In this document: positions 3,339-50,665 of the stretch, in pieces | How the letters are laid out: each line of letters begins with the position of its first letter | Position numbering within the stretch: position 1 is the stretch's first letter | Assembly: GCF_964355755.1 (NCBI RefSeq) | Contig: NC_092673.1 | Coordinates: 24,061,001-24,125,000 of the forward strand | DNA: 64,000 nt | Reading direction: 5' to 3' | Source: Antedon mediterranea | Lineage: Eukaryota; Echinodermata; Crinoidea; Comatulida; Antedonidae | Translations under genes and position numbers: made by a program | The notes under the pieces: model-generated | The model's database searches: none | What the model was told of the DNA's origin: nothing | What the model saw: only the letters and a program-made list of their open reading frames with translations

Positions 3339-3377
3339 CTTGATAACTTAATCACAAGGCCTAGCACGATGGTTTCA
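3339..3377 (-). other. 5' UTR part of coding exon, gene A
   Basis: On the minus strand a pyrimidine-rich tract ending in 'tattttacag' precedes 39 bases that lead to the ATG at 3338. This looks like the acceptor of an intron in the 5' UTR. The upstream non-coding exon and promoter were not located. Confidence 0.45.
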
Positions 3378-7797: not shown

Positions 7798-8203
7798 TGC
7801 TACTGAATGGCTACTGGAGAACGCAATTAAAAGTGTACAGATATATAATGTTAGCAACTGAATGTATTTATTTCTTTGTCCGCCGACCACTTCTTCGTGG
7901 ACTTGTTCACTACCAATTACAATCCAATCATACATAAACAATCATGTGTATACTCGGCTTGGTTTACTACAAATGGCGGTCAGACAGTTACGTATTGGTA
8001 CCAACTTCAGCCCAACGGGAAGCATATGGTCAATCTGTATTATTGCTGAGGTGCGACACCTCTCTTCTCTACAAGGTTGATGTGAGGTGTAATTACTACA
8101 TTCCTCCGCAATTCTTTTATACGGTAATACACCTGACTAGTTTTATGCAAATTACCCTTTGCGTTTAATTTTAAATACCCGTCACTTTTGACTGTGACAC
8201 TAA

Positions 8204-9730
8204 TATAGAATGTATCTATGTTATTCCTTATGCCCATTCACACACAACGCGGCGCAGACGGGCGGTAACGGTAATACTAATATAGAATGTATCTATGTTA
8301 TTCCTTATGCTCATTCACACACAACGCGGCGCAGACGAGCGGTAACGGTAATACTAATATAGAATGTATCTAGGTTATTCCTTATGCCTATTTACACACA
8401 ACGCGGCGCAGACGAGCGGTAACGGTAATACTAATATAGAATGTATCTAGGTTATTCCTTATGCCCATTCACACACAACGCGGCGCAGACGAGCGATAAC
8501 GGTAATACTAATATAGAATGTATCTATGTTATTCCTTATGCTCATTTACACACAACGCGGCGCAGACGAGCGGTAACGGTAATACTAATATAGAATGTAT
8601 CTAGGTTATTCCTTATGCTCATTTACACACAACGCGGCGCAGACGGGCGGTAACGGTAATACTAATATAGAATGTATCTATGTTATTCCTTATGCTCATT
8701 CACACACAACGCGGCGCAGACGGGCGGTAACGGTAATACTAATATAGAATGTATCTATGTTATTCCTTATGCTCATTCACACACAACGCGGCGCAGACGG
8801 GCGGTAACGGTAATACTAATATAGAATGTATCTAGGTTATTCCTTATGCTCATTCACACACAACGCGGCGCAGACGGGCGGTAACGGTAATACTAATATA
8901 GAATGTATCTAGGTTATTCCTTATGCTCATTCACACACAACGCGGCGCAGACGGGCGGTAACGGTAATACTAATATAGAATGTATCTATGTTATTCCTTA
9001 TGCTCATTTACACACAACGCGGCGCAGACGGGCGGTAACGGTAATACTAATATAGAATGTATCTAGGTTATTCCTTATGCCCATTCACACACAACGCGGC
9101 GCAGACGGGCGGTAACGATAATACTAATATAGAATGTATCTAGGTTATTCCTTATGCTCATTTACACACAACGCGGCGCAGACGGGCGGTAACGGTAATA
9201 CTAATATAGAATGTATCTATGTTATTCCTTATGCTCATTCACACACAACGCGGCGCAGACGAGCGGTAACGGTAATACTAATATAGAATGTATCTAGGTT
9301 ATTCCTTATGCTCATTTACACACAACGCGGCGCAGACGGGCGGTAACGGTAATACTAATATAGAATGTATCTATGTTATTCCTTATGCTCATTCACACAC
9401 AACGCGGCGCAGGCGGGCGGTAACGGTAATACTAATATAGAATGTATCTATGTTATTCCTTATGCCCATTCACACACAACGCGGCGCAGACGAGCGGTAA
9501 CGGTAATACTAATATAGAATGTATCTAGGTTATTCCTTATGCTCATTTACACACAACGCGGCGCAGACGGGCGGTAACGGTAATACTAATATAGAATGTA
9601 TCTAGGTTATTCCTTATGCCCATTCACACACAACGCGGCGCAGACGGGCGGTAACGGTAATACTAATATAGAATGTATCTATGTTATTCCTTATGCCCAT
9701 TTACACACAACGCGGCGCAGGCGGGCGGTA
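8204..9730 (+). repeat. Minisatellite, ~20 copies of a 77-bp unit
   Basis: Unit period is 77 bp, measured between successive 'tatagaatgtatct' starts (8204, 8281, 8358 and so on). Each unit reads tatagaatgtatctaggtta, ttccttatgctcattcacac, acaacgcggcgcagacgggc, ggtaacggtaatactaa. Units differ at a few fixed positions (ctatg/ctagg, gctcat/gcccat, ttcac/tttac, gacgag/gacggg), so variants can be followed along the array. It stops at ~9730, about 150 bp before the truncated LINE. There are no spacers and the variation lies within the unit, so this is not a CRISPR array. Confidence 0.95.
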
Positions 9731-15000: not shown

Positions 15001-15938
15001 ACGTTCGCTTTCTTATATAGGTATGGGACGGAATTGTTGTTAAAATATCACGTGATGTAAATTATGACGAAGCGTCTACTGAATGTCGTCGTTTGAAAGG
15101 ATTTCTTGCTCCTTACGAAATACTGATATCTGCCATCAAGTACGGAATGAAATTGACGTGTGATATCTGTTGGCTGATTAGTGGTGAGGTAACGTTCAGT
15201 AACGACCAGACAACGTGTGAACTCGTTAATCCAGATCTGCGTTGTAATCTTTATCCGGATCGTGCAGCATTATATTCCTGTTTCTATTGTTACATAAACT
15301 CTATCATCATGCCTTTTGGAATAGACTACCATTCTAACTGCAGAATACTGCATATTAGCTATGATAGCACACAGGGATATCACTACGCTGATGCAGAAAC
15401 ACGCTGTAGAGATGAGTTTAACGGACACCTTGCGTTACCATTGGAGCTGTATAACGTTAGCGTAAATGGTGTTAAGACGTGCGCGAAATCTTGGTTTTCA
15501 GGCAACCAAAAATCGAAAGCTGACTTAGAAAAAGATGTGTGTTGGGAAAACGCAATAACGGGAAATAAATTTAGAATTGTCAATCCCGACATTTATTACC
15601 AGCAAGCCTATTGTTCATTGTTAAATGTGGAACCGAGTGCTTACCCATATCCAGATCATGGTATAATACATGTTATTCCGACAGATTCAGATGGTGCTGA
15701 CTTAACATACTGGCAGGCAATGCAAAAGTGTACAGAAATCGGCGGTTCTCTTGCCTCTAAAAACCAGATGAGAGCAGCTAACGAAGCTGGCTATCAACAA
15801 CTTAGAAGAGGATGGATCAAAGACAAATACGTTGCATATTCGTGTTTAAGTAACTGTAGCCCAATTGGAGCTGAATTTTCAGGACCGAAATCTGGATCTT
15901 TAAAGTATGATGCATTTTGTCACGTTCCAAAATCTTAA
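12100..15938 (+). CDS. Secreted Apple/PAN + triple Link-domain protein A
   Basis: Three coding exons: 12100-12172, 14533-14762, 15021-15938 (406 aa), all with GT-AG splice sites and matching phases (1, then 0). Exon 1 encodes a signal peptide with hydrophobic core ICTILVGLSLVSSV-like residues (actual run MCTILVGLSLVSSVTC). Exon 2 encodes an Apple/PAN-type domain with Cys57, Cys61, Cys69 and Cys81 (C-x3-C-x7-C-x11-C). Exon 3 encodes three Link modules at about 102-195, 205-300 and 314-404. The last is the clearest: A-M-x-x-C-T-E-I-G-G-S-L-A-S-x-N-Q-M, then G-W, then DAFC. Link modules bind hyaluronan and related glycans; Apple/PAN domains bind proteins or carbohydrate. Extracellular matrix binding or recognition is therefore likely, though the exact ligand is unknown. 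N-glycosylation motif NVS at ~246. A second gene with the same structure follows at 18994. Intron 1 carries transposons. Confidence 0.85.
12201..12350. mobile_element. MITE family 1, copy b (in lectin A intron 1)
   Basis: Contains 'aaactatcaaagtttatgtg', the paired 'catatcactaccatatttgg' blocks and the right end 'actagtttgatagtgtagac'. The left terminus is degraded. It lies just inside intron 1, ~30 bases after the donor of exon 1. Confidence 0.75.
12628..14337. mobile_element. 1.7-kb element with ~50-bp terminal inverted repeats
   Basis: Left end 12628-12680 (aaagatgtattgtcc, then aaaaaacatgaaaaatgaag) matches the reverse complement of 14285-14337 almost base for base over ~50 bp. The interior is A+T-rich with no transposase frame, so it is non-autonomous. 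Related termini (gatgtattgtccccctgaaa) recur at 12683, 24855-24885 (inverted) and 50185-50210, which shows a dispersed family. It fills most of lectin A intron 1. No clear target-site duplication was found. Confidence 0.65.
14164..14204. repeat. Perfect 15-bp-arm hairpin
   Basis: aactagatggtacgc pairs with gcgtaccatctagtt around an 11-base loop (gagcgaagcga). It stands out as G+C-rich in an A+T-rich intron. It may be a palindromic end of a small mobile element. Confidence 0.7.
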
Positions 15939-18993: not shown

Positions 18994-20561
18994 ATGCAAC
19001 TTGTTCATATTTGTACAGTTTTAGTTGGCTTAAGTTCAGCAGTGGCTGTGACAGGTTAGTAGTACGATCTAGCTTCAAGTTATTTATTGAAGAAACTTGC
19101 TTTGGCGTCAGAATGCCTTTTAGTAAATTCATTCGTTCACTTAAGGTGTTCGATAGAATTGTTCTAGTTCAGACTTAAGTTTATTATACATTAGCCTTCT
19201 CTGTTACAAATTGATAGTATTACATTACAGTTTTGGTTATTATAGCTCAAAAAGTAAAGTGTAGTAGGCCTAAGTTCGCCTTTCTTGATCTACCTGCTTT
19301 TTTCCACTAAGGTATAACGCCAGGTTTGAAATCAAAGATATTTACTCTAGTTAGCCGAAGTAATGATCTGGTGACAAACGTTACTGCTATTCGGTGCGCC
19401 CAACACTGTCTACGACTTGGAGATTACACATGTTCATATATAACAGTTAATGCGAAAAATAGAAGATGTGAATTCAAGAAAGAAAAAAATGAGTCTAGAA
19501 CTGGAGTGAATTTGGAATATAAAGTCACTGTAAGTATTACTACGTTAACAAATCTATGTTAATCTCTCGATAAATATCAAGTATACAAACTATATGCTAT
19601 TATTTCATAATATATTTTTATTATGTGTTTTGTCTCTATATAGGTATGGGACGGAATTGTTGTTAAAATATCACGTGATGTAAATTATGACGAAGCGTCT
19701 ACTGAATGTCGTCGTTTGAAAGGATTTCTTGCTCCTTACGAAATACTGATATCTGCCATCAAGTATGGAATGAATTTGACGTGTGATATCTGTTGGCTGA
19801 TTAGTGGCGAGGTTACGTTCAGTAACGACCAGACAATGTGTGAACTCGTTAATCCAGATCTGCGTTGTAATCTTTATCCGGATCGTACATCATTATATTC
19901 CTGTTTCTATTGTTACATAAACCCTATCATCATGCCTTTTGGAATAGACTACCATTCTGACTGCAGAATACTGCATATTAGCTATGATAGCACACAGGGA
20001 TATCACTACGCTGATGCAGAAACACGCTGTAGAGATGAGTTTAACGGACACCTTGCGTTACCAATGGAGCTGTATAACGTTAGCGTAAATGGTGTTAAGT
20101 CGTGCGAGATAGCTTGGTTTTCAAATAACCTAATATCGAGGCCTGAAAACGCAGAAATATGTTGGGAAAACGCAATAACGGGAAATAAATTTAGAATTGT
20201 CGACCCCACCATTTATTACAAGCCAGCATACTGTTCATTGTTAAATGTAGAACCGGGTGCTTACCCATATCCAGATCATGGTGTAATATTTGTAACGCCG
20301 AAAGATTCGTTTAGGAATGTCTTGAATTACACGCAGGCTATGGAAAGGTGTACAGAAATCGGTGGTTCTCTTGCCTCTGAAAACCAGATGAGAGCAGCTA
20401 ACCAAGCTGGCTATCAACAACTTAGAAGAGGATGGATCAATGACAAATACGTTGCGTACTCTTGTGTACATGGTTGTAGTCCACTTGGAGTTACTGTTAG
20501 TAAGGGACAAAAATTGGAATCAAACCAAAATGATGCCTTTTGTCACATTCCAAAAACCTGA
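18994..20561 (+). CDS. Secreted Apple/PAN + triple Link-domain protein B
   Basis: Three coding exons: 18994-19054, 19312-19529, 19644-20561 (398 aa), with the same phases and domain order as the gene at 12100-15938. Exon 1 encodes a signal peptide (MQLVHICTVLVGLSSAVAVT). Exon 2 is an Apple/PAN-like domain with four cysteines at the same spacing (RCAQHC ... YTC ... RCEF). Exon 3 encodes three Link modules; the third contains CTEIGGSLASENQM, RGWINDKYVAYSC and DAFCHIP. The introns are far shorter than in copy A, which carries transposon insertions. The first ~450 bases of exon 3 are nearly identical to copy A, while residues after NVSVNGVK diverge (CEIAWFSNNLISRPENAE here). Likely an extracellular glycan-binding or recognition protein. 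A tandem duplicate with separate promoter. Confidence 0.87.
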
Positions 20562-21276
20562 ATTAACACATTTTTAGGCCTTTTTATTTTCTTGCGTTAT
20601 ACAATTATCAATGTATTATGATATTAATATCAATTAAAGTTAATTTAGTTGTTATCATTGATAATTATCAATGATGACCAACAATCTTGATTTGTGAAAT
20701 CTTTTATAGGGTCTAATTAAGTCGTTGTTTATACAAATTAAATAATTGTGCGTTAAATTCATGTTCTTGTCGTGGCCAGGAAATATTTTTGGATAGTCAT
20801 AGTCTAGCTCTATATTTATCTTTTTGATTTACTTTATATCCATTTTAATATTTAAGCAAATGTATAATCAGTGTTCAATCAATAATCAAAGTGTAAGGCT
20901 TAATTGAATTTATGGTATTTTATAGTAAATTGAATAAAATCCCCTTTAACGTGGCAGCGATAAATAGATAAACATGTATCTTGCATAAAACAAACGAAAT
21001 TAGAAAAGTTTTCATTCTAAAACAATACGATAACCATTTATGCTGTCTTGTATAAAAATCATATTAAATACAATTTTTTTAAAGGTTAGACAGATATGTC
21101 TATGGTTACCTTTCTCATGTTTGTTGTGACTAGGCCTATAAGAAAACGGTTCAAATGCATTAACAATAAATCAATTTTAGGTGATTTTTTTTTGCTTAGG
21201 CCTAAAAGTATTAATTTCAAAAAAAGCCGCGGAGAAGTGCGCTTGGCGCAATGTCATAGACGATGGTGGATTAATA
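20562..21276. other. Intergenic, A+T-rich, nothing recognised
   Basis: 3' flank of lectin-like gene B. An ATTAAA at about 20632 could serve as its polyadenylation signal. No other feature is supported. Confidence 0.4.
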
Positions 21277-21545
21277 TAATAATCATTTGTGAGTTTGAAT
21301 CCAACGTTTGTCGCATCGCTTGTATCATCCTCCAAGACTCTTCCAAGACACGTTGGTTTGCCTCTCTCCACCCAGGTGCACAAGTGGGTACATGGTAAAG
21401 TTAAAACACAATTGCGCTGATTTCACTAGCTGCATTTATTATGGTAGTAAGTTTCCGGCATGTTTGATCCAAAAAATGACCAGGGTAATAATGTGAAGCG
21501 CTTAGAACCTTTGTGCAAAGCTCTATATAAAATGAGTATTATCAT
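21277..21545 (+). mobile_element. SINE family 2, copy in + orientation
   Basis: Shares several blocks with the reverse complement of 62018-62290: a 'gcttgtatc' block, 'ccaagacac', 'tttgcctctctccacccagg', a 'gggtac' stretch, 'agctgcatttattatgg' and a terminal 'gctctatataaaatgagtat'. Its upstream side has 'gtttgaatccaa', like a worn tRNA B box. It is probably a tRNA-derived SINE lying between lectin gene B and the next gene's promoters. Confidence 0.6.
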
Positions 21546-21640
21546 TTTTTATTTATTGTTGTTTTGTGATAAAAAAATATAGATAAAGTAGGCCTACTTT
21601 AGATCGAATTTTATCAGAATACTTAATACGTCACATATGA

Positions 21641-21783
21641 GCATGCGCAAACAACCATGGTTACATCCTCTATGTTTTACGCATGTGCAAAAGATGCTAT
21701 CACATTGATGTGCGTGTGGTTACCATAACTACACGTATACATACTTGTCCATTCATCGCATACTCGAAAAAACTAAAATAAAA
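21641..21783 (+). promoter_or_regulatory. Promoter block for alternative first exon 1a
   Basis: Contains gcatgcgcaaa and gcatgtgcaaaa (NRF-1-like GCGCATGCGC variants), then 'tgtgcgtgtggttaccataa', 'ctacacgtatac', and finally 'ctcgaaaaaactaaaataaa' directly before the ATG. The same ordered elements precede exons 1b and 1c, which is why I read this as a duplicated core promoter with short 5' UTR. Confidence 0.55.
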
Positions 21784-21831
21784 ATGCCTTCTTTACTTTG
21801 CTGTTGCGGAAACAATAGTTCTACAGTCCAG
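21784..21831 (+). CDS. Alternative first coding exon 1a
   Basis: ATG to CAG, 48 bases, 16 codons: MPSLLCCCGNNSSTVQ, followed by donor gtaaagttt. It ends in phase 0, as exon 2 at 25109 requires. Sister exons 1b and 1c have identical length and phase. Confidence 0.7.
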
Positions 21832-24800
21832 GTAAAGTTTAAAAACTATAAAATTGTTTGTATGGGGTTTAGACAATTTGAAAAAATCAAGAAAAAACTT
21901 GGAAAACTTAACATTTTTCTAGGGCTTCTAGCCTAGGCCGCGCCGCCGCCTTCCGAATCGAGCGTTAGGAGGTGCGTGTGAGAATTAAAGAAACATGGAC
22001 GTGCTTTCCAATTCTAAGCTACACACCATCATGATTCGTTTGTGCGCATGTGCAAATAGGCTCACAATAATGTGCGCATTGTTAAGTTACCATAAACTAC
22101 GTACGCGTACATGGCCTATGAAGCAAAGTTTACTACATACTCGTTTAGAAAACCTAAAATAAATGTTATCTTTTCTATGCTGTTGTAAGAACAATACCTC
22201 AAGAATCCAGGTAAAGTTTTATAACTATACAAATTGGGAAGTATAATTTTAAATAAACAATGAAGAAGAATGTAAAAATTTGACATTTTGCTTTGCCTCT
22301 CCTCCTCCTCCTCCTCCCTCCTCCTCGCTACTAGCTAAGCGCGCCTGCTGAATTGAGCCTTACTGCTGGTGCGCGCGCAAGGATGAAAGAAACACAAGGT
22401 CAGCAGCATCGGAGAGGAGAGAGCCTGTTTTTAGTGTGTATAATAATAATATATGAGGCCGGCTGGCTCTCCTACACACTCTATCTTGATTTGGTGGTAT
22501 GTGCGCATGTGCAAATAGTCTCACAATTATTGTGCGCATGGCAACCATTAACTACGTACGCGTATTATAAAAATAAAATACAAAAAGTTACATACATTTC
22601 TTTCACATAAATCCGTACTGTACTCGAAGAAACCTAAAATAAAAATGTTATCTACTCTATGCTGTTGCAAAACCAATTCCTCAAGAGTCCAGGTAAAGTT
22701 TGATAACTTATTCTTTTTTTGTTTGTAATAATACATACATTTGAGCTAGGAGCCTAAGTAGGCCTAGGCCTAGCCTAGGCCTAGTACACAACACAGTAGC
22801 CTACTAGGGCTAGAGCCTAGGTAGTAGGCTAGTAGTAGGCCTTAGGGCCTAGCTAGTAGGCCTAGTAGGCCTAGGCCTAGTACAGTAGCAGAAAGCTAGG
22901 GCCGCCTGCGCTGCTGAAAAAACGAGCGTTTGTACGTCGTTGGTGTTTGGTGCGCGCACGCACGTCTCGTGAGGATTGATTGAAACAAGGTGTCAGGGAG
23001 AGCTAGTAGGCTAGCTAGTCTAGGCCTAGTAGGCTATTCTATATATACCCTAACTAGCTAGGCCTAGGCCCCTAGTAGGCCTAAAGGTAGGGCCTAGGCT
23101 AGGCCTCTTAGGGCTACTAGGAGGCCCCTAGGCCTAGCCTCCTTTTTGATCCTCTCTCTCTCTCTCTCTCTGTGAATAGAGACAAATTTCCATCCAATTA
23201 TGTATTGTGGTCGTAATTTAACGAAATAATTTAAAGTATAGGCCTAGGCTTAGGCTAGGCCTAGCCTTAGCCTAGGCCTAGGCCCTAGGCCTAGCTGGGC
23301 ATTTATTAGAGAAAAAGAAATTTTAATTAGGCCCTATATAGGCCTCAAGCTAGCTAGGCCCCCAGGCCTTCTATGCCTAATAAGTAATAGGCTAGGCCTA
23401 GAGGCCTAACTATCTAGGTTAGCCTAGGCCTATGCTAGTAATAATGTATAGGCCTAGATTGTTTTATTTCTTTTATCAAATACAAAATAAAAAAAAAATT
23501 AAAATTGCTGTGTGTTCTCTAAAAATTAACAATCCAATCAAACAACAGTGCGCGAGGCCTATAGTATTAGTTTTAGGTATCTAAGAAAAGCTTTTTTTTT
23601 TAGATATAAAAATTATTATATCCAAATATTATTAGTTTTGAAATGATATTTTATTTTTATCTGTCTGTTTAATATAATTTTATTCTTTGTCTATATACTT
23701 CTTATTTTCCACAAGCATTCTGCTTTTTCTTTATCATACCTTCTTCAACTGTTATCGGTTTTTTTTTCCCTAATGTAGTGTATATTCTTGTTTTTAAAAA
23801 TCAGCCTTTCTTTAGATGCCTATTATTTATCCAAGGGATATGCAGAACTATTGGTAAATAAAATATGTGTCTAATTTTATGTCACTGTGTGTTTATTTGT
23901 TTGTATCCTCATTTAATATATGTGTATTTCTGTATTTTCCCTTTTTATAAAACTTTGTAACATTTAAATGATTTTATTAATACACTGATTTAATTTAATA
24001 TTTTAAAATTTAATTTTCTAATTAATGTTATTAGATATTATTATTATTTCAATTATGAATATTTTGTATTCTATTAATTAAATATGAACTTGAACTTTAA
24101 AAATAATTAGGCCTACTTAATCTAAAATAAATTTATAGCTCATATTCATAATTAAAAATGTTAATAGGTATATACCTATATTGATTAATCTAAAATTATA
24201 ATAATTATTTTTTTTTTATTTAACTTTCCTCAAGAAATGGAAATTAAAATGTTACTATATAAATCCTTGTTATTTTATACCATATCATAATGCATTGATT
24301 ACATTTTCCAATCATGGGTTTTTTAATATTAATTAAACCAATAACTGAAAAATATAATAATTACATTTAATTTTAATCAATTTTTTTTTACATTTATTTT
24401 TTAAACAATTCAAATAAAGATAATAAATTTCTTTTTATTTAAAATGTGTTAATGTTATTAAATTATTTTTGTTATTGTTATTAACCTTAAATATTAAATA
24501 ATATAAAAATATTATCACAATATTATATATTTATTGTTATTAAAGTTTTCAACTGTTGATTGATTTGTTTAATTGATTTGTTAATGTTACTAATAATACT
24601 AACAATACAATTTGAAATACTTCATGTTGAATTTTTTTTTTATTAATTTGTGATTCATCAAAGTTGTTCATAGTTTGTTTTGTGGTTTGTGTTATTATTT
24701 CTTTGAAAAAGTTACTATCAATTAAAACAATAAAATAATAAACCTCCAGAATAATGACCAGAATTATGTGGTTTTACAAAAAGTCCCAAAACTTATTAAA

Positions 24801-27502
24801 ATTAGTGAAAAGTAAATAACCATTATATGACAAAAAATTGTATAAAAACGAATTTTTTCAGGGGACAATCTTTCAATTTAGTATTATTTGAGGGGTTTCA
24901 ACTTGCATGGAAATATTTGTTTTTGATAAAAATATAACTTTGCACTGACTAAAATTATTGATAAAATGTCAATGATCGTAATTTGATTTTTCTGTCTATC
25001 GAAAGACCTGTTTACATGATATATAAAGATAAATTATAAGTTTATTCAAACAACAAAATGTTATGTTAAGTAATGATTGCAATACTAATAGTTTTTATTG
25101 GTGTTTAGGTATTAGATACCATTGGACCAGCTGCCGCAGCTAATGCTGCCGCAGCTGAGGCTGCTGCTGCTGCTGCTACGCCAGCAGTGATCGCTGATGA
25201 CCCCATATTATCAGAAAACCAGCATGTATTCCTTTCGTGGATAAGGAGGAGGCGGAGGAGAAGAAGAGAGAGTAGTAGTCGGCAGAGAGAGGAAAGTGAT
25301 AGACAGGCTCAGTGGAGGAGCTATTACATGGGTGTGGGACCGAAAGTAGGCATAAATTGTTTTAACTATAATAACTGATCATTCAATTGAACTTCCATTG
25401 ATAGATTGAGTATTTTTTTGTTATTAATTAAACAAATACAGTGGCAGATCTAGGATTTTGAATTAAAGCAGGTTTGATTTTTTTTTTTTTTTGGGAAGGA
25501 AAAATGGGGTTGGGTGAGAGATGGTCTTGCAAGGCTTAATAAATGAAGTGAAGAACTTAACCTACTGTACATATGTGCCATTACCCTAGTATTGATGACA
25601 TATTCAAATAATAAAAAAAAGGATTTTTTGGTGAAATAGAAGGGCACTCCGAAAATGCTTCGCCTACTGTAAAATTCCCCCTACATAAAATATCACCAGA
25701 AAATTAATATTTAAAAAATGTTTAGTGTTAGTGTTGCATGTTAGACTAATTGCACTACACAACCTTGTGAGTTTCTTGTGGTTATATATCTAGCCTCTCA
25801 CAGTTGAGATCTATGGTTCAATTGCTGCTGTGGACCTTTTTTTTATTACTATTTTTTTATTATTATTAATTATTATTTATTCATTACCACATATCTGTGG
25901 TTTCAATTTGGTAAAGGTCTGGCAATAACTTGTTAAGTAATCCTACTAACTAACAAAAAATATAGAAACACACGCAATCGACTACATAACCTCTCGCCAT
26001 TCTGGCGGAGGTAATTACAGACAGATAATAAAAAGAGTTAGTAGTAATAAAGAAGTAGAATAGTAATTTTGTATTATGATATTGTAACAATTGACTGATC
26101 GATTTATTTATAGCCTATTGATGACATCGAAGATGTACCTACCATCAAACCAACGTTTAACACTCCGACAGTGGAACCAAGTGGGTGCCTATCGCCCACT
26201 TTCTCAACCACAACATACATTGTATCCTCTGTTGGAAGTGTTGAGAATGTGCAAGTTGAGGAGAGAGGTATAATGCAAAAAAGCTAACTCAACAATGATC
26301 TACCCATTATAGTATGATAAACAAAATATTCAAGTAAAAAGTATTCTGTATTATAACACAATTACTAAGCTAACATTAGTGAATAATAAGTTGGAAAAAT
26401 AACATGTTGTGTGTAATACACATAATGGAATACACAAATTAAATTAATTTCTTTAAAAATAAAAAAAAATAAATTAAAAATATTCAAATGTATAGACAAC
26501 ATACAAAATAAAAAAATTAAACAAAGGATACTTGAAAAAACAATCTAAAATTAAACAAAGGATACTTGAAAAAACAATCCAAAATTAAACAAACAGAGAT
26601 CAAACAATTTAAAATGCAACAGCATTGACCTAATTTAAAAGAGCATACTGGGCAAGTATTAAATCAAAAATAATTTTCCAAAAATAGTACAGTAGTTATA
26701 ATTAGAAATTAATAATATTATTTCATCATTAATTTTTAGATAGAACATCTTCAGCACAACCCACCACACCCCAACCTCCTACCAGTGAAGTTGATCCAAG
26801 TGCATCCCCAGTGATGGATAGAGATTCCCCGAGTGGTTCGATCGAACCAGATCCACTGGAAATGGCACGGAACATCTTAAATTCTGGAAAATGTGAATTT
26901 CCACCAGAGATTAAGGTTGCTTTTCCCCAAGCGCCCACTGAGAAAAGCTGGATCGACGTCCTTAAAGAACGTTTTAACTTAAGAAAGATGATTCTCAGAC
27001 TAAGGCGACGATCCGGAAGGTCATCCGGTAGGTCATCTGTAAGTATCATGCCTTTGGTGGTGTTTGTTTGTGGTGGATTTGGTTGAATGTAAAAGAAAAA
27101 AAGTACAATATGGACAAAGCACTAACTTTGGTTGTAATTCTAAATACATATATTATATTACATATAGGATGGTTGGTTTGGGTGAAATTGGTTTTTTTTC
27201 CTGTAGTAGATTTTAACATTCATTTTATTATAATTTTTATTTAAAAAAAATTAAAAGTTGTTTTATATAGTAAAAAACAAATGAATACACCAGAGTACTT
27301 TATATCAAAAGTACTTAGAAAATGAATAGATAATTTTTAATTTGTTTTACAGCCCTCCTTCGAAGATGAGCCCAAAGAACCGGATGACTTGCCTGGCGAT
27401 TTTGAACGTGATTACAACTCCAACTTAAACGTAATCCATATTTCGTCGGGCATCATTCCAGACGAGGATGTAATCCTCCCTGGAATGGTCATGCCATACT
27501 AA
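21784..27502 (+). CDS. Unrecognised protein with three alternative first exons (isoform a span)
   Basis: Isoform a joins 21784-21831, 25109-25345, 26114-26267, 26740-27038 and 27353-27502 (295 aa). All junctions are GT-AG and the phases agree (0, 0, 1, 0). Exons 1b (22163-22210) or 1c (22645-22692) can replace 1a. I do not recognise the family. Residues 1-16 (MPSLLCCCGNNSSTVQ) have a Cys6-Cys7-Cys8 cluster suited to S-acylation; there is no Gly2, so no myristoylation. Residues 24-39 are Ala-rich and 62-69 are eight Arg in a row. The middle is Pro/Ser/Thr-rich. Exon 4 has a more ordered segment (LEMARNILNSGKCEFPP ... SWIDVLKERFNLRKM) and another Arg-rich run. The C-terminus is acidic and ends in PGMVMPY. 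Membrane anchoring through the lipidated N-terminus plus basic run is an inference. Intron 1 holds the TAGGCC-rich block. Confidence 0.72.
22041..22162 (+). promoter_or_regulatory. Promoter block for alternative first exon 1b
   Basis: Runs tgtgcgcatgtgcaaatagg, ctcacaataatgtgcgcatt, then 'gttaccataaactacgtacg', 'cgtacatgg', and 'aaaacctaaaataa' before the ATG. The elements match, in order, those before exons 1a and 1c. Confidence 0.55.
22163..22210 (+). CDS. Alternative first coding exon 1b
   Basis: 48 bases, 16 codons: MLSFLCCCKNNTSRIQ, donor gtaaagttt, phase 0. It keeps the Leu-Cys-Cys-Cys motif and the Asn, Ser and Gln pattern of 1a and 1c while differing at half the residues, as expected of a duplicated coding exon rather than chance. 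Confidence 0.7.
22501..22644 (+). promoter_or_regulatory. Promoter block for alternative first exon 1c
   Basis: Runs gtgcgcatgtgcaaatagtc, tcacaattattgtgcgcatg, 'gcaaccattaactacgtacg', 'cgtattataaaa' and 'ctcgaagaaacctaaaataa' before the ATG. It is longer than block b because of an A+T-rich insertion after the cgtacgcgta string. Confidence 0.55.
22645..22692 (+). CDS. Alternative first coding exon 1c
   Basis: 48 bases, 16 codons: MLSTLCCCKTNSSRVQ, donor gtaaagttt, phase 0. It is nearest to the common exons. A further block downstream (about 22901-22990) resembles the sequence that follows exons 1a and 1b, but has no fourth CCC exon. Confidence 0.7.
22740..23470. repeat. TAGGCC/CCTAGG-rich low-complexity block
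   Basis: Dense, irregular TAGGCC, GGCCTA and CCTAGG hexamers (aggcctaggcctag-type strings), mostly palindromic, within intron 1 of the three-promoter gene. A (TC)n run at about 23153-23172 and ordinary sequence interrupt it. Single TAGGCCTA motifs are scattered through the rest of the window, and a smaller cluster lies at 42590-42730. It is not a strict tandem array. Confidence 0.8.
23471..25108. other. A+T-rich part of intron 1
   Basis: Very A+T-rich intron sequence with no coding frame. At 24851-24885 it has 'ttttttcaggggacaatctt', an inverted terminal repeat of the AAAGATGTATTGTCCCC family seen in lectin A intron 1. It ends at the acceptor 'ggtgtttag' before exon 2. Confidence 0.5.
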
Positions 27503-27660
27503 GTGTAAGGTAAGCAGTCGTTTAAACCACATCCTACATTGTTCTAACTAGCATCAGTTTATTTTTTATGGCAAAGCACTAAATTGTCAAAATTAGCAAA
27601 TCATACTTTAGGGGGGATGCGCGTCCCTTCCTGGATACGCCACCGTTGCTTAATAGTTAT
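25441..27660. repeat. Scattered transposon end fragments in introns
   Basis: A 'gtggcagatctaggatttt' string at 25441 and 'cctggatacgccaccg' at 27630-27645 resemble opposite ends of a hAT-like non-autonomous element. They flank genuine exons, so they are more likely separate fragments. 26515-26590 also has a short tandem duplication of 'aaattaaacaaaggatactt'. Confidence 0.3.
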
Positions 27661-29543
27661 GATTAAGTATAAAATTATAATTAGTTTAGTTTTTGTTTCC
27701 AAGCTGTTGTGAAGATAATACAGTGTGGTTCTTTTTAAAATTATTTGCCATGGGTTTTTTCCCCACTACTATCTTCAAGATATAATTGATTCGAAAAAAA
27801 TCCATTTAAACAATATGATTGTAATACAAGATGTACTATCAACCAAAAATCAAATTAAAAATATTAATTAAGCTATTATGATGATTGTATCTTTTAAAAT
27901 TATTTGCCATTGGTTTTCTCCCCACCACTATTTTAAAGATATATTTGATTAAATAAAAACCATTTAAATAATATGATTGCAATACGAGATGTACTATCAA
28001 CCGAAAATCAATTATAAAAATTTTAATAAAGCTATAGAAAAAAAAAATAGTTTACAGCCTATATTTACTGTGTTTCTATTCTTTTTTTTCAGGAATTGTT
28101 TTTGTGTAGCTCAATGGCGGTAAGTTTGTAGGGGAGAGAGAGGAGTGTGTTTTTCTTATGGTAGGTGGATGGCGAAACCTGTATATGACTCTTTCTTTCA
28201 AATCTCTTTACATATCTCTTGATTTGATGTGAAGTTATGAGCATGGGTTGTGTTATTTGTTTTGTGGTATGACTGATCGGTTATTTTGGTTATTTTTTTT
28301 TTACAGTAAGGTTGTGGGGAGTTTTAATTGGTTGCATTAATTAATCCTGATGCTTGAACGTGTTTTTGCCAAACATACAGGTTTATTATCATTGTTGTAA
28401 CATTGGCTAAATTACATCTTTTATAATTTTAATGAATATAGAAGTACTGCAAAAACACAAAACAGTATTTTAATGGTTACTAGTATAAGTCAGTGCATTT
28501 TTGTAACTAAATTGATGTTTGACAACATACGTTTTGGCAACGATAAACCTATAAAACAACTTCTCTGTTAATTGAATGTACAGGCGCTATTTGTTACAGG
28601 TAAAGAATAACACACTGTTATTTGTAATTGTCTACAATGGACAATTTGCAAACTATTGTTTTCTATAGGATGTATTTTTCCACAAATTACTGACTATAGT
28701 TCAAAGGTCAATAGGGTTATCAATGTGCATGCCTATATTTATCCGAGTGGCGCATAATGCGATTGCGTTCCGAGTGAGTATGTCTTTGCTTATCAATGTT
28801 CAAATGAGCTCGTTTGCTGTGTTGTGGTCGGTTAGAGGAGTCTTCGTTTTGAATCTCATGGATTTGTTCGGCTCGTGAGATGCATTCGTAAAGCCTACAA
28901 GTGTTGCCTATGTTATGTAAGTAGCATTTGTCGGTAAAAAAATGCTGCAACTCGTGCCCGGTATTGATTTATTTTGTCTTTGACTTGCGCTTACTCCTGC
29001 ATGGAAATTTCACCTTACGCGTTCTCTGATTGGTTAAATATTTTGAACAATTATCAATTGTGATGTAATCTCACTATTCTCTCATTGATGTATGAGTAAA
29101 AGGTACAACAGGTAAACAAATACTAAGAAAAAGTGAATGATATTTAACCAAAAAAAGTAGAAAGTTTATTAGGACATACAATACTGTACACGCTATAAAA
29201 TAACCTACCTATAGTAAAATTTCCACTTTATAATAATGGCCCAATTAAATCTTGTCTTGTCCCATTATTAGATGACGCGTTTTATGTTCGCACAATGGTC
29301 TGTATTTGAGAGAGTGCACTTGCCCTTATATGTCAAAAAACTAGGTTCACTAATACTGTAAAAAAATAATAAAAGACATAATTTTATTCCATAAAAAATT
29401 TGATTGGTTTGTTTACATTATGCTTACACACTAAAATATGAAATTAAAATAAACTCTTACAAAATAAATTCAAATTAAACTGATGATGTTGAATATTGTA
29501 TCTAGATATAATATTACATATCTCATAATTATCTCCATAAAAA
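27503..29543. other. 3' flank of the three-promoter gene
   Basis: After the stop at 27500-27502 a donor-like 'gtaagcag' at ~27511 and an acceptor after a long T-tract at ~28092 suggest a 3' UTR intron, but this is weak. 27720-28030 holds a diverged ~175-bp direct duplication ('aaattatttgccat ... ttttccccac' twice). No other gene is supported. Confidence 0.4.
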
Positions 29544-29812
29544 AAGTCTGAGAAACCTCTTTCTTAGGTTGAACCGTTCTTTCAGAACGTCGATCCAGCT
29601 TTTCTCGGTGGGCACATCGAGAAAAGCAAACTGGTGGAAATTCACACTTTCCAGAATTTAGGATGTTCATTGCTATTTCCATTGGATCTGGTTTGATTCA
29701 ACCACTCGGGGAATCCCTATCTACCACTGGGGAATCCCTATCTACCACTGGGGAATCCCTAACTACAACTGGGGAATCCCTATCTACCACTGGGGAAGCA
29801 CTTGGTTCAACA
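29544..29812 (-). pseudogene. Broken inverted copy of exon 4 of the three-promoter gene
   Basis: Read on the minus strand it matches 26740-27038 through NILNSGKCEFPP, EKLDRRSERT-type shifted frame and the 'agaaaagctggatcgacgt' stretch. It is broken by a TGA in place of a Ser codon after SPSG, and by an 8-base deletion after the CEFPP codons that shifts the frame. It also carries a four-fold 21-bp expansion (29708-29791). Both ends of the exon are missing, so it cannot be spliced as in the parent gene. Confidence 0.75.
29708..29791. repeat. 21-bp tandem repeat, 4 copies, inside the exon 4 copy
   Basis: ggggaatccctatctaccac plus t, four times, the third copy with three substitutions. In the parent exon's frame each unit is seven codons (D-R-D-S-P-V-V order). 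The parent exon has one unit. Confidence 0.9.
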
Positions 29813-29815
29813 TAT

Positions 29816-29968
29816 TCAGTTATTGTTTTTAGCTTCTCTCACTTCTATAGCTAGTTTCCATTCACCATTGTACATGAGAAACAATGCTCTCTTAATACTG
29901 TAGCTATTTCCAATCCCTGCCACTGTGAACTTTGCTATTGTTTTAGCTTTCACACCAGTCCCAGCCAT
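29816..29968 (-). CDS. Small 50-aa ORF of unknown status within the inverted array
   Basis: An ATG-started frame begins MAGTGVKAKTIAKFTVAGI, continues GNSYSIKRALFLMYNGEW, and stops at TGA. I do not recognise it. The first ~19 codons recur in each array unit (ATG positions near 30332, 30702 and 31067), where the frame ends early after ETRKSRN. It could be a real exon fragment or a chance frame. It sits between the exon 4 copy and the first exon 3 copy and has no counterpart in the parent intron. Confidence 0.25.
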   Translation of the reverse strand: MAGTGVKAKTIAKFTVAGIGNSYSIKRALFLMYNGEWKLAIEVREAKNNN

Positions 29969-30068
29969 GCAATTGTGTTATAATATACAGGATACTTTTT
30001 ACTTGAATATTTTGTTTATCATACTATAATGGGTAGATCATTGTTGAGTTAGCTTTTTTGCATTATAC

Positions 30069-30222
30069 CTTTCTCCTCAACTTGTAAATTCTCAACACTT
30101 CCAACTGGCGATACAACAGATGTTGTAGTTGAAAAAGTGGGCGATGGGCACCCACTTGGTTCCACTGTCGGAGTGTTAAAAGTAGGTTTGATGGTAGGTA
30201 CCTCTTTGATGTCATCAATAGG
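30069..30222 (-). pseudogene. Inverted exon 3 copy 1
   Basis: 154 nt, same length as the parent exon 3 (26114-26267). It is open in the parent frame (PIDDIKEVPTIKPTFNTPTV ... VENLQVEE) and keeps both the 'tatag' acceptor and 'gtataa' donor. Whether it is expressed is unknown; its downstream exon 4 partner is broken. Repeat period to the next copy is 369 bp. Confidence 0.8.
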
Positions 30223-30437
30223 CTATAAATCAATCAGTCAATTGTTACAATATTAGTTTCTAGACTTTCTAGTTTCAATCCCTGCCACTGTGAACTTTGC
30301 TATTGTTTTAGCTTTCACACCAGTCCCAGCCATGTAATTGTGTTATAATAATTATACAGAATACTTTTTACTTGAATATTTTGTTTATCATACTATAATG
30401 GGGAGATCATTGTTGAGTTAGCTTTTTTGCATTATAC

Positions 30438-30591
30438 CTTTCTCCTCAACTTGTAAATTCTCAACACTTCCAACTGGCGATACAACAGATGTTGTGGTTG
30501 AAAAAGTGGGCGATGGGCACCCACTTGGTTCCACTGTCGGAGTGTTAAAAGTAGGTTTGATGGTAGGTACCTCTTTGATGTCATCAATAGG
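30438..30591 (-). pseudogene. Inverted exon 3 copy 2
   Basis: 154 nt, intact frame and splice sites, almost identical to copy 1. The flanking intron sequence (including 'cttgaatattttgtttatca') is duplicated with it, showing that the whole ~366-bp segment was amplified. Confidence 0.8.
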
Positions 30592-30803
30592 CTATAAATC
30601 AATCAGTCAATTGTTACAATATTAGTTTCTAGACTTTCTAGTTTCAATCCCTGCCACTGTGAACTTTGCTATTGTTTTAGCTTTCACACCAGTCCCACCC
30701 ATGTAATTGTGTTATAATAATACAGAATACTTTTTACTTGAATATTTTGTTTATCATACTATAATGGGTAGATCATTGTTGAGTTAGCTTTTTTGCATTA
30801 TAC

Positions 30804-30957
30804 CTCTCTCCTCAACTTGCACATTCTCAACACTTCCAACAGAGGATACAATGTATGTTGTGGTTGAGAAAGTGGGCGATAGGCACCCACTTGGTTCCAC
30901 TGTCGGAGTGTTAAACGTTGGTTTGATGGTAGGTACCTCTTTGATGTCATCAATAGG
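30804..30957 (-). pseudogene. Inverted exon 3 copy 3
   Basis: 154 nt, intact frame and splice sites. It is the copy closest to the parent exon: the TTTYIVSSVGSVENVQVEER end is identical, and the main differences are IKEV in place of IEDV near the start. Confidence 0.8.
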
Positions 30958-31168
30958 CTATAAATCAATCAGTCAATTGTTACAATATTAGTTTCTGGAC
31001 TTTCTAGTTTCAATCCCTGCCACTGTGAACTTTGCTATTGTTTTAGCTTTCACACCAGTCCCACCCATGTAATTGTGTTATAATATACAGGATACTTTTT
31101 ACTTGAATATTTTGTTTATCATACTATAATGGGTAGATCATTGTTGAGTTAGCTTTTTTGCATTATAC

Positions 31169-31322
31169 CTATCTCCTCAACTTGCACATTCTCAACACTT
31201 CCAACAGAGGATACAACGTATGTTGTGGTTGAGAAAGTGGGCGATGGGCACCCACTTGGTTCCACTGTCGGAGTGTTAAAAGTAGGTTTGATTGTAGGTT
31301 TCTCTTTGATGTCATCAATAGG
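31169..31322 (-). pseudogene. Inverted exon 3 copy 4
   Basis: 154 nt with intact splice sites and open frame; farthest from the exon 4 remnant and first in the minus-strand reading direction. No copy of exon 1 or exon 2 was found beyond it, so the array lacks a start. Confidence 0.75.
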
Positions 31323-34300
31323 CTATATATAAATCAATCAGTCATTGTCACAATATAAGTTTCCTGGACTTTCTGCATTCTCACTCCTGACACACTGTAC
31401 TATGTACATATTTTTTTCTGCGGCCACAGATAAACCCTTTGATCTCAGGAGCGCAGCGTCCTGTTTGCCTTTGTTAAACACAGCATGTTGTTTAGCTTGA
31501 CAAACTTTCTACCCACTGGCGGTTAATAATCATAAACATTTTCAAATGGTTTGTTCACTTGTCACTTCCCATTCAAGCTCTTCTCTAACATCAATGCGAG
31601 ATAAGCGAGTTCATTGGTTAATAGTTCAAATATTAGACCAATCGGATTGCAAATAGGGTGTTACTGCACTGCACTGTAGGTAAAAGTTGATGGTTAAATA
31701 TTTCAAAATCGGGCTTTAGTTGTGGTGTTTTTTTCGATGCATCTTGGGGTCGGATGAATTCCAAAATGAGGTTTGAAGCGGAGGAGTCTCTGGCTGCCCA
31801 TGGCATGGCAAATACAGACTCATTGGGCATTGAATAGCGATTGATGTGCGCATTCGGAATGCAGTCGGATCATGGGTTACTCGGTTTTTTGTGGGCATGC
31901 ACATTGAGAACTCTATTGACAATATTGATACAGTGTGTATACATGGTCCTTTTTAGAAGGCCAACTAGGTATGCTTCGTGGTGGCACACATCTACAATTT
32001 TGTGTTGCCAATAAGAAACTAGTTATATATTTCTGTACCAAAATAAAGCATCTGAAAAGGTAAAAAAGAACGAGGAGTTTAATTTACCAAAAAGAAACAC
32101 CTTGATTGCAATAAACATCTTGCATTTAATGTAATTGGTTGCCATTTTGGTTTTAAAATGTTGCCGTTAAATGACATCATTCAGGAAATAAAATGCACCA
32201 TGATAACAATACATAAAGACCATTATTAACATCTGACAATGGTTTAGCAACTGTTAAAACACTGTTGCAAAAACATCAGCAAAAAAAAAACAGTGCTCTA
32301 TTAGTAGTCTGTTACAGAATTGCTTTGCTTACAAATACCAAAGCATTTAGCAAAATAATGAACCTACCTCTATTATGGCTTTATCGAGAGTATTGGGTGA
32401 TTTTGTTGCCATCGATTTTAACTTTTTACAACCTGAATTAAGTAAATAACATCAAAGATTGTCATTAAGCCGACCCGCCTGCTGCATTCATTTACTGTGA
32501 TTTTATGCAAATTTCTGACCAACTTCGTCTTGAGTTTGAACGGGGTGCGTTTGATTGAGAAGTTGTCAGGCTAGACTGAAGCCTGCCAAAGATTACATAA
32601 CGAGTCAAACCTACTGCTTGCCGCCACGAGCATACTATTTTAGCTACACCGCCGAACATTGAATAAACTTTGATATACAGTACATATATATGATATATTT
32701 TTAGTGTTTTATTTGTTTCGAGTTTTTGAAACATGTTTGCCAGGTCTTTAGATATTGTCCTGCTAATTTTAAACAATATTCTAATGTCACCAAAAATTCG
32801 ATAATAATAATTGAAACAAAAAATCGGAAACCAATTGTCTGGAAGGCAACAGTTTTCCGGTTAAGTTTATTTTGTCTTTTTAAAGCAAAATCGTTATTTT
32901 GGTTTTTATTCCCAACGAAAATGAATAACTTGTTTAAAAGGGTTTGATATTATCCATCTTTATTTTACCTTAACACGTTCTAAAATGATAAATGATGTTT
33001 TCAAACCTTTTAACCTTATATAACCTTACATAATGTATTTAATAATATTATTAAGATCAAATATGGATTTATTGACTTTCAATACTACCTATTGTATTGT
33101 ATAGACTATCATACTATGATACTTTAAATTACTTTTTTTTTGCAATAATTTGTTTAACCTTCAGAACGTTATGTTTATATGAAAATATGTATTTTCAGAT
33201 ATAATATTATTATTTCTATTGCCTTGATATAATTGGCTTATTTTCAATACCTTTATACTTTGTAAATATGTAATAACAAACTAGCTTCTATTTTAATTGG
33301 AAACAAACTAATTAGTTGTTCACTGTACAGTCAAATGTAGCTCAAACATAGAGATAGTATAGTATCCGAGTATGTATCCGATTTTAATAAGGTCTGTTAA
33401 AACGGGTTTTGACATTCTGAAATAAAAATGGTTTTAGTTTAAAAATATACTGCCCTCTGTCGGCGGAATAAAGTTTGTTTCTTCAGGGATTAGCGAGATC
33501 GCGATTTCAACTCCTAGAAATAAAAAATCCTTGATTGACGCCCTATGCTATGATTTAATGCAAATTAATGGTGTACATTTATCGGCGTGGTAATTGTATA
33601 AAGTTTCTTTATCCTATGACTAGAATTAATATGATGAAAGTTTAAGCTAAAAATCGTGCTTTTTAACCTTTTGTCACCTGATAAGAAGTTCTGATTCAAA
33701 CAAGGCCAAATAACACCGAAAACAACACGTTTTTTTATTGACAATATAATACCGGTAATAGCCAGAGTTGTGTATTTCAATGCATCTCAATTGAGGTGTG
33801 AAATTATACGATTTAAATGTCTTAGTGAATAAGCCAAAGATTAGGCCTACGATATATTGGAGGTTGAAGTAGTAATTATTTGAGTACCGTATAAATACGG
33901 CAACACCTTTAAGTCGATTGCTTGAGAGTAATTCAGTTCGAATGATTTCAAATCACCAAAGGAATTTAACAGAGAGTTGTTGTGAACAACTCTCTGAATA
34001 GCTTTCGTTTTTAAGCTACAACTGCCGCTTCCTCCGTCCCCTCCCTCTTCATAACAATTAGGCCTAGTAAATACGATTAGTCACCCGAAACTCGTTTATC
34101 TTTCCGGTAAAACGCGACATTTCAATAATCCACATGTTGCATAATACCTTGTGTAAATTACAAAATATGTTCCCACTTCGCTTGCATGCCGTGGGTGTTT
34201 AATCATTAAGAGGGCGTCGTTATTATCTGAAACTCTAAAAAATGAAGACGGAGCGTGCTCGAGAGTTAGGACGGGCGGTTGAGCGAAAGCCCGCGCGCCA

Positions 34301-37541: not shown

Positions 37542-38654
37542 TTACGGATGTTTAAACATCAGGTGAAAAACACATATGCACCCGACGACTGACCTTGCGA
37601 TTATTGCGAGAAATACTTTCAACATGACATCCATCATACAACAGAATTGATATATATTTGTTAGTACTTCCAAATTTGAAAGATACTCGATGGAAATTGA
37701 TGAAGAGGAACTTGGTGCCCTCTGCTGCACTGATCCACATATGCACGTTTCTACAATAGTTTGAGACTTTTCTTTTACCTTAAGTTTGGCATTCACCTCA
37801 GATGAAACTTCCGGTCTGCAATTTACTACCTCTTCCGTGTTTCTTTCTTCCAATTTCGACGTATCAATCCTCTCTTTCCTTCTTCTCCTTCTCTTCCGAG
37901 AGTCAATATTCAAAACATCCCCGTTCAGTTCAATCAACCCTTTGCCTTTACGAGTTTTGACTAAATCCTTAAGTTTTAATAACTCGCAATTAACGAATTT
38001 CATTTTTTCTGACATTTTGTTTACTTCGTCTTCCAACTGTTTTTTCTCGTATTCAGTTTCTTCAAGCTTGCTTTTAATTTGTTTTAATTCCAAAATATTC
38101 CAGCAAAGATGGTTATTTTCGTCTTCAAGTTTTCGCGTATATTGTTGCTCCTCGGACATTGCTCTTTGAAATGTGTCAGTAACCTGTGACATGATAGTAT
38201 CCAAAGTGAGCTGTTCACCTGAGTTGTTGGTTTGTTCCCCCATTTTACTGCTGCAGACGATGGATCTATCGCTAAATTCAACATCGGCACTATCGCAGCT
38301 AGATCTGCTGCCGTTATCATTACCATGTGTGCGTTCATCAAAAGGGTACACTTGTTTCCCGTTTGCAAAAACCTTTTCACCGCAGTCTAACAAAACAACA
38401 GTTTTCTTTTTTACCTCCTGGTAGTAAATCTTAAAACTGCAACCTTTAAATTTCTCGTTATAAATTAGTTTCGAACTTCCGCCGCCAAAACTGTTTCCAA
38501 ACGATTGTGGTCTGGACGCGTGCTGGTGTCGTCTGCCTCTTGATAGTTTGTCTCGTTTGTGTACGCTGTACATCCTCATCGGGGCATCTTGTTCGATACC
38601 ACTTTCAACCTCACTCATTTTGCTACCTCTGACTAGAGAATGTTGTGAGCCCAT
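37542..38654 (-). CDS. N-myristoylated coiled-coil protein, paralogue B (unrecognised family)
   Basis: 370 aa, starting at the first in-frame ATG: MGSQHSLVR, with Gly2 and Ser6 fitting N-myristoylation. The frame is open farther upstream but without an ATG. Residues ~60-105 match paralogue A at 1701-3338 (SKLIYNEKFKGCSFKIY, then VVLLDCGEKVFANGK and VYPF). A coiled coil follows at roughly 155-245 (LEDENNHL, LEETEYEKKQLEDEV), then a basic run RKRRRRRKER. It lacks A's second coiled coil and R-A-x-S-L repeats. The last ~70 residues look unlike coding sequence (hydrophobic, Cys-rich), and an in-frame donor-like AAG|gtaaaa at about 37780 means they may be intron read-through, so the true C-terminus is uncertain. 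A TATA box lies ~115 bases upstream. Function unknown; membrane-anchored adaptor by inference only. Confidence 0.75.
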   Translation of the reverse strand: MGSQHSLVRGSKMSEVESGIEQDAPMRMYSVHKRDKLSRGRRHQHASRPQSFGNSFGGGSSKLIYNEKFKGCSFKIYYQEVKKKTVVLLDCGEKVFANGKQVYPFDERTHGNDNGSRSSCDSADVEFSDRSIVCSSKMGEQTNNSGEQLTLDTIMSQVTDTFQRAMSEEQQYTRKLEDENNHLCWNILELKQIKSKLEETEYEKKQLEDEVNKMSEKMKFVNCELLKLKDLVKTRKGKGLIELNGDVLNIDSRKRRRRRKERIDTSKLEERNTEEVVNCRPEVSSEVNAKLKVKEKSQTIVETCICGSVQQRAPSSSSSISIEYLSNLEVLTNIYQFCCMMDVMLKVFLAIIARSVVGCICVFHLMFKHP

Positions 38655-38768
38655 CTTGTATCCAGCAACGTGTACAAAAGAAAGTACCGTATCACAGTAC
38701 ACAGCAAAACAAGTTTGCAACCGATCGCTTGAGAGCAAATGTCTGAGTTCCGATTCACATCCGTGCAA

Positions 38769-38774
38769 TATATA
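38769..38774 (-). promoter_or_regulatory. TATA box of paralogue B
   Basis: TATATA, within 'aaggtatatattgcac' on the minus strand, 115 bases upstream of the ATG at 38654. The spacing allows a transcript start ~30 bases on and an 85-base 5' UTR in the same exon. Confidence 0.5.
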
Positions 38775-50599: not shown

Positions 50600-50665
50600 A
50601 GGGTTATCCCTATTCAAGACTTGTTTATCTACTGATAACTATGAGCAGAAGACAGAAGTAGCAAT
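50600..50665 (+). other. 5' UTR part of the first coding exon of Roquin
   Basis: A strong acceptor, 'tgtttttgtttttacgcag' ending at 50599, precedes 66 bases leading to the ATG at 50666. In the vertebrate genes the start codon also lies in a second exon. The upstream non-coding exon was not found and may lie far to the left. Confidence 0.5.

What the first reader, a model, noticed from the sequence alone, without database searches (positions are those of the whole stretch)
21641..22692. Three tandem, homologous alternative first exons, each with its own promoter
Seen: three 48-nt exons (21784, 22163, 22645) each encode 16 residues of pattern M-x-S-x-L-C-C-C-x-x-N-x-S/T-x-V/I-Q, each followed by gtaaagttt and each in phase 0 for exon 2 at 25109. 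Each is preceded by the same ordered promoter strings (gcgcatgtgcaaa, tgtgcgcat, ctacgtacgcgta, cctaaaataa) and followed by a related block (gagcgtt/gagcctt ... ggtgcg ... gaaacaa). Known: clustered variable first exons are used by protocadherins and UGT1 to make isoforms. Inference: promoter choice swaps the lipidated N-terminus of an otherwise constant, unrecognised protein.
Basis: partly seen in the sequence, partly recalled or inferred. Interest (0 to 1): 0.8.

Follow-up and report, generated by a model that had tools for sequence, protein, structure and literature searches.

The report
Gene with three duplicated first exons
A single animal gene of unknown function carries three side-by-side copies of its short first exon, each with its own copy of a promoter-like stretch, so it can probably be switched on from three start points that give proteins with slightly different cysteine-rich front ends; whether all three are used is untested here.

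Summary
Three 48-nt exons (21784, 22163, 22645) match the stated pattern, end at the same GTAAAGTTT donor and join in phase 0 to exon 2 at 25109. I extended the gene: exons 2-5 splice with GT-AG sites and compatible phases into a 295-aa protein. It has no Pfam match above cut-off and no significant PDB match, and tblastn finds it once in the 354-Mb genome apart from a broken inverted copy nearby. The units were found only here. BLAST finds the exon block between all pairs and the promoter block between copies 2 and 3, not the spacers, which points to selection on both. Two corrections: the four upstream strings are exact only in copies 2 and 3; and all three exons keep CCC, so lipidation, if real, is shared rather than swapped. 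Best reading: a tandemly duplicated promoter plus first exon making three start sites for near-equivalent N-termini, copy 1 neutral and copies 2 and 3 at +2 charge. The layout is known (UGT1, protocadherins, Arabis alpina PEP1). No transcript evidence was available, so use of each exon is unproven.

The parts
21675..21743 (+). promoter-like block P of unit a (degenerate copy)
   Evidence: profile 54.5 bits; 89% and 81% identity to b and c over aligned columns; not found by blastn
21784..21831 (+). first exon 1a, 16 codons MPSLLCCCGNNSSTVQ, donor at 21832
21955..22000 (+). intronic block D of unit a
   Evidence: profile 26.3 bits
22038..22109 (+). promoter-like block P of unit b, with TGCGCATGTGCA (NRF1-like)
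   Evidence: profile 62.8 bits
22163..22210 (+). first exon 1b, MLSFLCCCKNNTSRIQ, donor at 22211
22350..22396 (+). intronic block D of unit b
   Evidence: profile 36.8 bits
22497..22564 (+). promoter-like block P of unit c, with TGCGCATGTGCA (NRF1-like)
   Evidence: profile 70.6 bits
22645..22692 (+). first exon 1c, MLSTLCCCKTNSSRVQ, donor at 22693
22919..22990 (+). intronic block D of unit c, with insertions
   Evidence: profile 25.0 bits
25109..25345 (+). constant exon 2 (poly-Ala, poly-Arg)
   Evidence: GT-AG, phase 0 at both ends; tblastn
26114..26267 (+). constant exon 3
   Evidence: GT-AG, phase 0 to 1; tblastn
26740..27038 (+). constant exon 4
   Evidence: GT-AG, phase 1 to 0; tblastn
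27353..27502 (+). constant exon 5, coding part with stop codon
   Evidence: end worked out from the exon lengths and the 295-aa length
29545..31374 (-). broken inverted partial copy: exon 3 four times in a 369-nt tandem, then exon 4 with a stop and a frame change

Best explanation
A promoter plus first exon plus the start of intron 1 was duplicated in tandem twice, the b-c split probably being the later (b and c are the most alike). The result is three start sites feeding one constant set of four downstream coding exons. Each start site most likely makes its own pre-mRNA, whose first donor (GTAAAGTTT) is spliced over 2.4-3.3 kb to exon 2; copies further 3' are removed as intron. The products are 295-aa proteins identical except for the first 16 residues. 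Those residues keep a Met-x-Ser-x-Leu-Cys-Cys-Cys core that probably anchors the protein to membranes by S-acylation. Shown: array, frames, donors, constant exons, focal conservation of exon and promoter-like block, no second intact copy found in the genome. Inferred: transcription from each copy, splicing to exon 2, acylation, and that the main difference between copies is when or where each is used, with a smaller effect of N-terminal charge.
For: Coordinates, frames and donors; five-exon gene with matching phases; three and only three copies in the window and in two searches of the genome. Unguided BLAST of 20501-33500 against the window finds the exon block between all three pairs and the promoter block between b and c; even at E up to 0.1 no other match joins two units, apart from short-repeat matches after exon 1c. 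Pairwise z for b-c: 16.4 promoter, 17.0 exon, 0.1 spacer, -0.1 intron. dN/dS for the three pairs 0.18, 0.49, 0.61. With the observed 11, 3 and 4 changes, start codon, open frame and GT donor survive in all three by chance in 6.1% of simulations, and in 0.39% if CCC is also required; with 12 changes per copy 0.36% and 0.0025%. The 9-nt donor has 0 changes in 27 sites against 18 in 144 exon sites, P=0.038. No AG in the 60 nt before exon 1a.
Against: No transcript data. One genome only, so conservation across species is untested. Copy a has a degenerate promoter block that blastn does not match to b or c and may be weak or silent. The contrast between blocks and spacers is strong for b-c only: the a-b intron still aligns (z 6.9), the a-c spacer gives 3.5 and the 100 nt upstream of P give 3.8 for b-c. 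Frame survival alone is not decisive (6.1%), and CCC was chosen after seeing it. dN/dS rests on about 10 synonymous sites per pair, and 9 amino-acid changes against 10.6 expected is not low (P=0.26). Gene conversion could also keep blocks alike. AG dinucleotides occur upstream of b (-41, -36, -16) and c (-59, -17); the nearest ones lie within one column of each other in the alignment, and that of b follows TTT, so a use as acceptor is not excluded for b and c.
Confidence: 0.7

Rival explanations
1. Only one or two units are active; the rest are relics of a duplication still looking intact by chance.
For: Copy a's promoter block has none of the four strings exactly shared by b and c; frame, start and donor would survive in all three by chance in 6.1% of simulations at the observed change counts.
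Against: b-c spacer and intron have diverged to chance level while promoter and exon blocks stay at 91% and 90% identity; adding the CCC core lowers chance survival to 0.39%.
Confidence: 0.18
2. Promoter choice gives functionally distinct N-termini (for example neutral versus basic anchors sending the same protein to different membranes), as first proposed in stronger form. This refines the best explanation rather than excluding it.
For: Copy a is neutral, b and c carry +2; KChIP genes use N-terminal variants with different membrane anchors (PMC3973911 passages).
Against: The cysteine core is the same in all three, and b and c differ at only four residues.
Confidence: 0.2
3. The array is selected as a cluster of factor-binding sites that boosts one promoter; the repeated exons are passengers.
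For: 4 of 6 NRF1-like sites with at most one mismatch in the window fall in 21600-23000.
Against: The exon block is conserved at least as strongly as the promoter block, with donors unchanged; two of those four sites are duplicates of each other and one (22953) lies in a D block.
Confidence: 0.08

Closest known systems
Arabis alpina PEP1 (FLC orthologue), tandem first-exon duplication (PMC7927791, one passage read)
   Same: Tandem duplication of first exon with parts of promoter and first intron, giving overlapping transcripts with different start sites.
   Different: Plant; a duplicated region of about 2 kb with two first exons, against three units of about 0.33-0.49 kb here; transcripts are reported there, not available here.
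UGT1 and protocadherin variable-first-exon clusters (PMC1885805, PMC3325998, PMC7811963, passages read)
   Same: Tandem similar first exons of nearly equal length and same frame, a conserved motif upstream of each (for most protocadherins), one constant exon set.
   Different: There each variable exon is large and encodes a signal peptide plus a recognition or ectodomain; here it is 16 codons with a conserved core. CTCF-type control was not tested.
KChIP / DPP6 N-terminal variants (PMC3973911, passages read)
   Same: Different start sites give different N-termini on a shared core; 8 of 17 KChIP variants are listed there as S-palmitoylated, by prediction and mutational analysis.
   Different: The passages I read do not describe a tight tandem array of homologous exons; no relation of the core proteins was found or specifically tested.
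GAP-43 N-terminus (recalled, from no call)
   Same: Short N-terminal cysteine signal for acylation beside basic residues.
   Different: Recalled as a single first exon; no comparison was run.

Membership tests
Multiple-variable-first-exon gene (UGT1/Pcdh type) | Tandem array of homologous first exons, same length and frame | tested here: met
Multiple-variable-first-exon gene (UGT1/Pcdh type) | Common downstream constant exons | tested here: met
   exons 2, 4 and 5 found intact once in G000
Multiple-variable-first-exon gene (UGT1/Pcdh type) | Conserved motif upstream of each first exon | tested here: met
   profile hits at all three; strings exact in two of three
Multiple-variable-first-exon gene (UGT1/Pcdh type) | Each exon transcribed from its own promoter and spliced to the first constant exon | not testable with these tools
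   no transcript data
Multiple-variable-first-exon gene (UGT1/Pcdh type) | Variable exons are large and encode a diversified functional domain | tested here: not met
   16 residues with conserved M-x-S-x-L-CCC core
PEP1-type tandem first-exon duplication | Duplicated segment spans promoter, first exon and part of intron 1 | tested here: met
   P, E and D blocks in each unit; promoter character itself not testable
PEP1-type tandem first-exon duplication | Transcripts start from each duplicated first exon | not testable with these tools
   no transcript data
NRF1/P3A2-controlled promoter | GCGCNTGCGC site bound by NRF1 | tested here: inconclusive
   TGCGCATGTGCA and TGAGCATGCGCA are each one mismatch from a recalled 12-base consensus, consistent with the GCGCNTGCGC of PMC10810270 (passages); binding not testable

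The most novel reading that the evidence does not exclude
A possibly lineage-restricted, probably membrane-anchored protein whose acylated N-terminus is supplied by an expanding array of very small promoter-exon cassettes, a miniature variable-first-exon cluster in which each cassette is specialised for a cell type and a charge state.
Probability: 0.15. Interest if true: 0.6.

Novelty: new member of a known kind. Interest (0 to 1): 0.36.

Why it matters
If all three units are used, this is a very compact natural case (three promoter-exon units in 1.3 kb) for studying how duplicated promoters share or divide a gene's expression while feeding the same protein core, and whether small N-terminal changes next to an acylation cluster matter. 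It would also show that the variable-first-exon layout can arise on a very small scale.

Tried and rejected
Considered and rejected: separate small genes (only one intact set of exons 2, 4 and 5 found); a dispersed repeat (the unit was found only here); cassette exons in the middle of a transcript (no AG in 60 nt before copy a; less firmly rejected for b and c, which have AGs at -16 and -17); a fourth related unit (none in the window); a tRNA or Rfam RNA (none in the window).

Led nowhere: bacterial promoter scan, 4 found against 4.1 expected, not meant for animals. RFX X-box idea: two-mismatch matches are scattered all over the window. Composite promoter pattern in G000 with a 10-40 gap found only copy c; copy b's gap, from the positions, is 41. 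TGCGCATGTGCA in G000, 320 hits against 14 for the backward pattern, is not a clean promoter signal: the backward control has more CpG, and a ten-site array at C1:1100396-1104262 lies in EGF-like coding exons by my own reading of the one kilobase fetched, which holds 3 of the 10 sites. COX1 search to identify the phylum found nothing. Echinoderm or relative is my guess from recalled sequence character, from no call.

One search printed 25 of its 26 rows; the one under 40 nt lies at 29708-29797, outside the array. Mirror rows were dropped in both.

Literature: five searches on first-exon arrays, seen as listings; 'tandem duplicated first exons' 0 papers; 'duplicated first exons' 1 paper, on PEP1; two more on acylated N-termini and NRF1/P3A2. 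Five papers were opened for passages (searches cover six openings: PMC1885805, PMC3325998, PMC3973911, PMC10810270, PMC7927791, PMC7811963; so six in all). Zhang et al. 2004 is not held. I ran no literature search for this particular gene, which has no name here.

Full report
What is there. The three exons exist as described. They are 48 nt each at 21784, 22163 and 22645, encode MPSLLCCCGNNSSTVQ, MLSFLCCCKNNTSRIQ and MLSTLCCCKTNSSRVQ, and are followed by an identical GTAAAGTTT. Exon 2 at 25109 is open only in the frame that phase-0 joining requires. A relaxed grammar for such an exon hits exactly these three places in the window, both strands, and none in 40 simulated windows. Profiles built from the copies find no fourth unit in the window: exon block 70-77 bits against at most 5.7 elsewhere, promoter block 54-71 against at most 6.1, downstream block 25-37 against at most 1.3. 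In the 354-Mb genome a 211-base DNA query and a 35-place pattern with two mismatches found only these copies.

The gene. Following the frame gives exons 2-5 at 25109-25345, 26114-26267, 26740-27038 and 27353-27502, with AG acceptors, GT donors and compatible phases, ending in a stop: 295 aa with any of the three starts. Pfam gave nothing above a curated cut-off (best 15.2 bits against 25), and the best PDB match has E 0.014 over the low-complexity part. tblastn with exons 2-5 found 10 matches in G000, all at this locus: 4 are the gene's own exons, 6 lie in an inverted partial copy at 29545-31374. That copy holds exon 3 four times in a 369-nt tandem and an exon 4 broken by a stop and a frame change. 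Cysteines are at 6, 7, 8, 120 and 198, and the most hydrophobic 19-residue stretch averages only 1.2, so the CCC cluster is the only obvious membrane-anchoring candidate. That it is acylated is inference from the resemblance to short acylated N-termini (GAP-43 recalled; KChIP variants, PMC3973911 passages).

Each unit. Each unit reads P-E-D: a promoter-like block of about 70 nt, then short 5'UTR, exon and donor, then an intronic block. Unguided BLAST (20501-33500 against the window) recovers the exon block for all three pairs and the promoter block for b-c; even at E up to 0.1 nothing else joins two units, apart from short-repeat matches after exon 1c, and copy a's promoter block and the D blocks are not found. 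With hand-chosen segments, b-c alignments score z 16.4 (promoter), 17.0 (exon), 0.1 (spacer), -0.1 (intron). The contrast is weaker elsewhere: the a-b intron still aligns (6.9), the a-c spacer gives 3.5, and the 100 nt upstream of P give 3.8 for b-c.

Is the coding part under selection? dN/dS is 0.18 (a-b), 0.49 (a-c) and 0.61 (b-c), on about 10 synonymous sites per pair. Against it: 9 amino-acid changes from the majority sequence against 10.6 expected, P=0.26. Start codon, open frame and GT survive by chance in all three in 6.1% of simulations at observed change counts, 0.39% with CCC required; CCC was chosen after the fact. The 9-nt donor is unchanged in all copies, P=0.038. Together with the focal conservation I read this as moderate support.

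Control elements. TGCGCATGTGCA in units b and c and TGAGCATGCGCA at 21638, upstream of unit a's block, are one mismatch from a recalled 12-base NRF1 consensus, and NRF1 has a sea-urchin homologue P3A2 (PMC10810270 passages). 4 of the 6 such sites in the window lie in 21600-23000, but two are duplicates of each other and one lies in a D block. The genome-wide count of that word (320 against 14 for the backward pattern) is partly coding EGF-like repeats, by my reading of L014, so I draw nothing firm from it.

How it probably works. Each unit is a start site; the transcript's first donor joins exon 2, and any later unit is spliced out as intron. That exon 1a has no AG in the 60 nt upstream fits a first exon; b and c have AGs at -16 and -17, so internal use of those two is not strictly excluded. 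The copies most likely differ in timing, place or strength of use, since b and c encode nearly the same peptide. The change from neutral (a) to +2 (b, c) could tune membrane binding; that is inference.

Comparison. The layout is that of multiple-variable-first-exon genes (UGT1, protocadherins; passages) on a very small scale, and closest in origin to the tandem first-exon duplication at Arabis alpina PEP1 (passage). It fails one feature of the UGT1/Pcdh type, large diversified variable exons, so I file it under the broad kind only. Interest is moderate: well-supported anatomy, known principle, unknown protein, no expression evidence.

Noticed in passing
29545-31374 (- strand): Inverted partial copy of the gene with exon 3 amplified four times in a 369-nt tandem, each copy keeping its AG acceptor and an open exon frame, and a broken exon 4; antisense transcripts from it could pair with the gene's RNA (speculation).
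   Followed up: partly
1701-3347 (-) and 37542-38786 (-): Two related proteins (32% over 171 aa) containing MGNKQS and MGSQHS, which look like N-myristoylation starts (recalled motif); no Pfam family above cut-off.
   Followed up: partly
15021-15938 and 19644-20561 (+): Tandem pair of open frames 81% identical; the first has Link domains, the second was not scanned.
   Followed up: partly
8199-9730: Tandem array of about 20 copies of a 77-bp unit, just before open frames with a reverse-transcriptase match.
   Followed up: no
50645-53839 (+): Probable Roquin gene: RING exon at 50645 and start of a ROQ domain near 53800, the latter below Pfam's cut-off.
   Followed up: no
22740-23440: Intron 1 after unit c is rich in TAGGCC-type short repeats, which may account for part of its divergence.
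   Followed up: no
L014 (G000:C1:1100300-1101300): Tandem EGF-like exons (my reading of the letters) with the listed word spaced near 415 bp; found because TGCGCATGTGCA is part of the coding sequence there.
   Followed up: no
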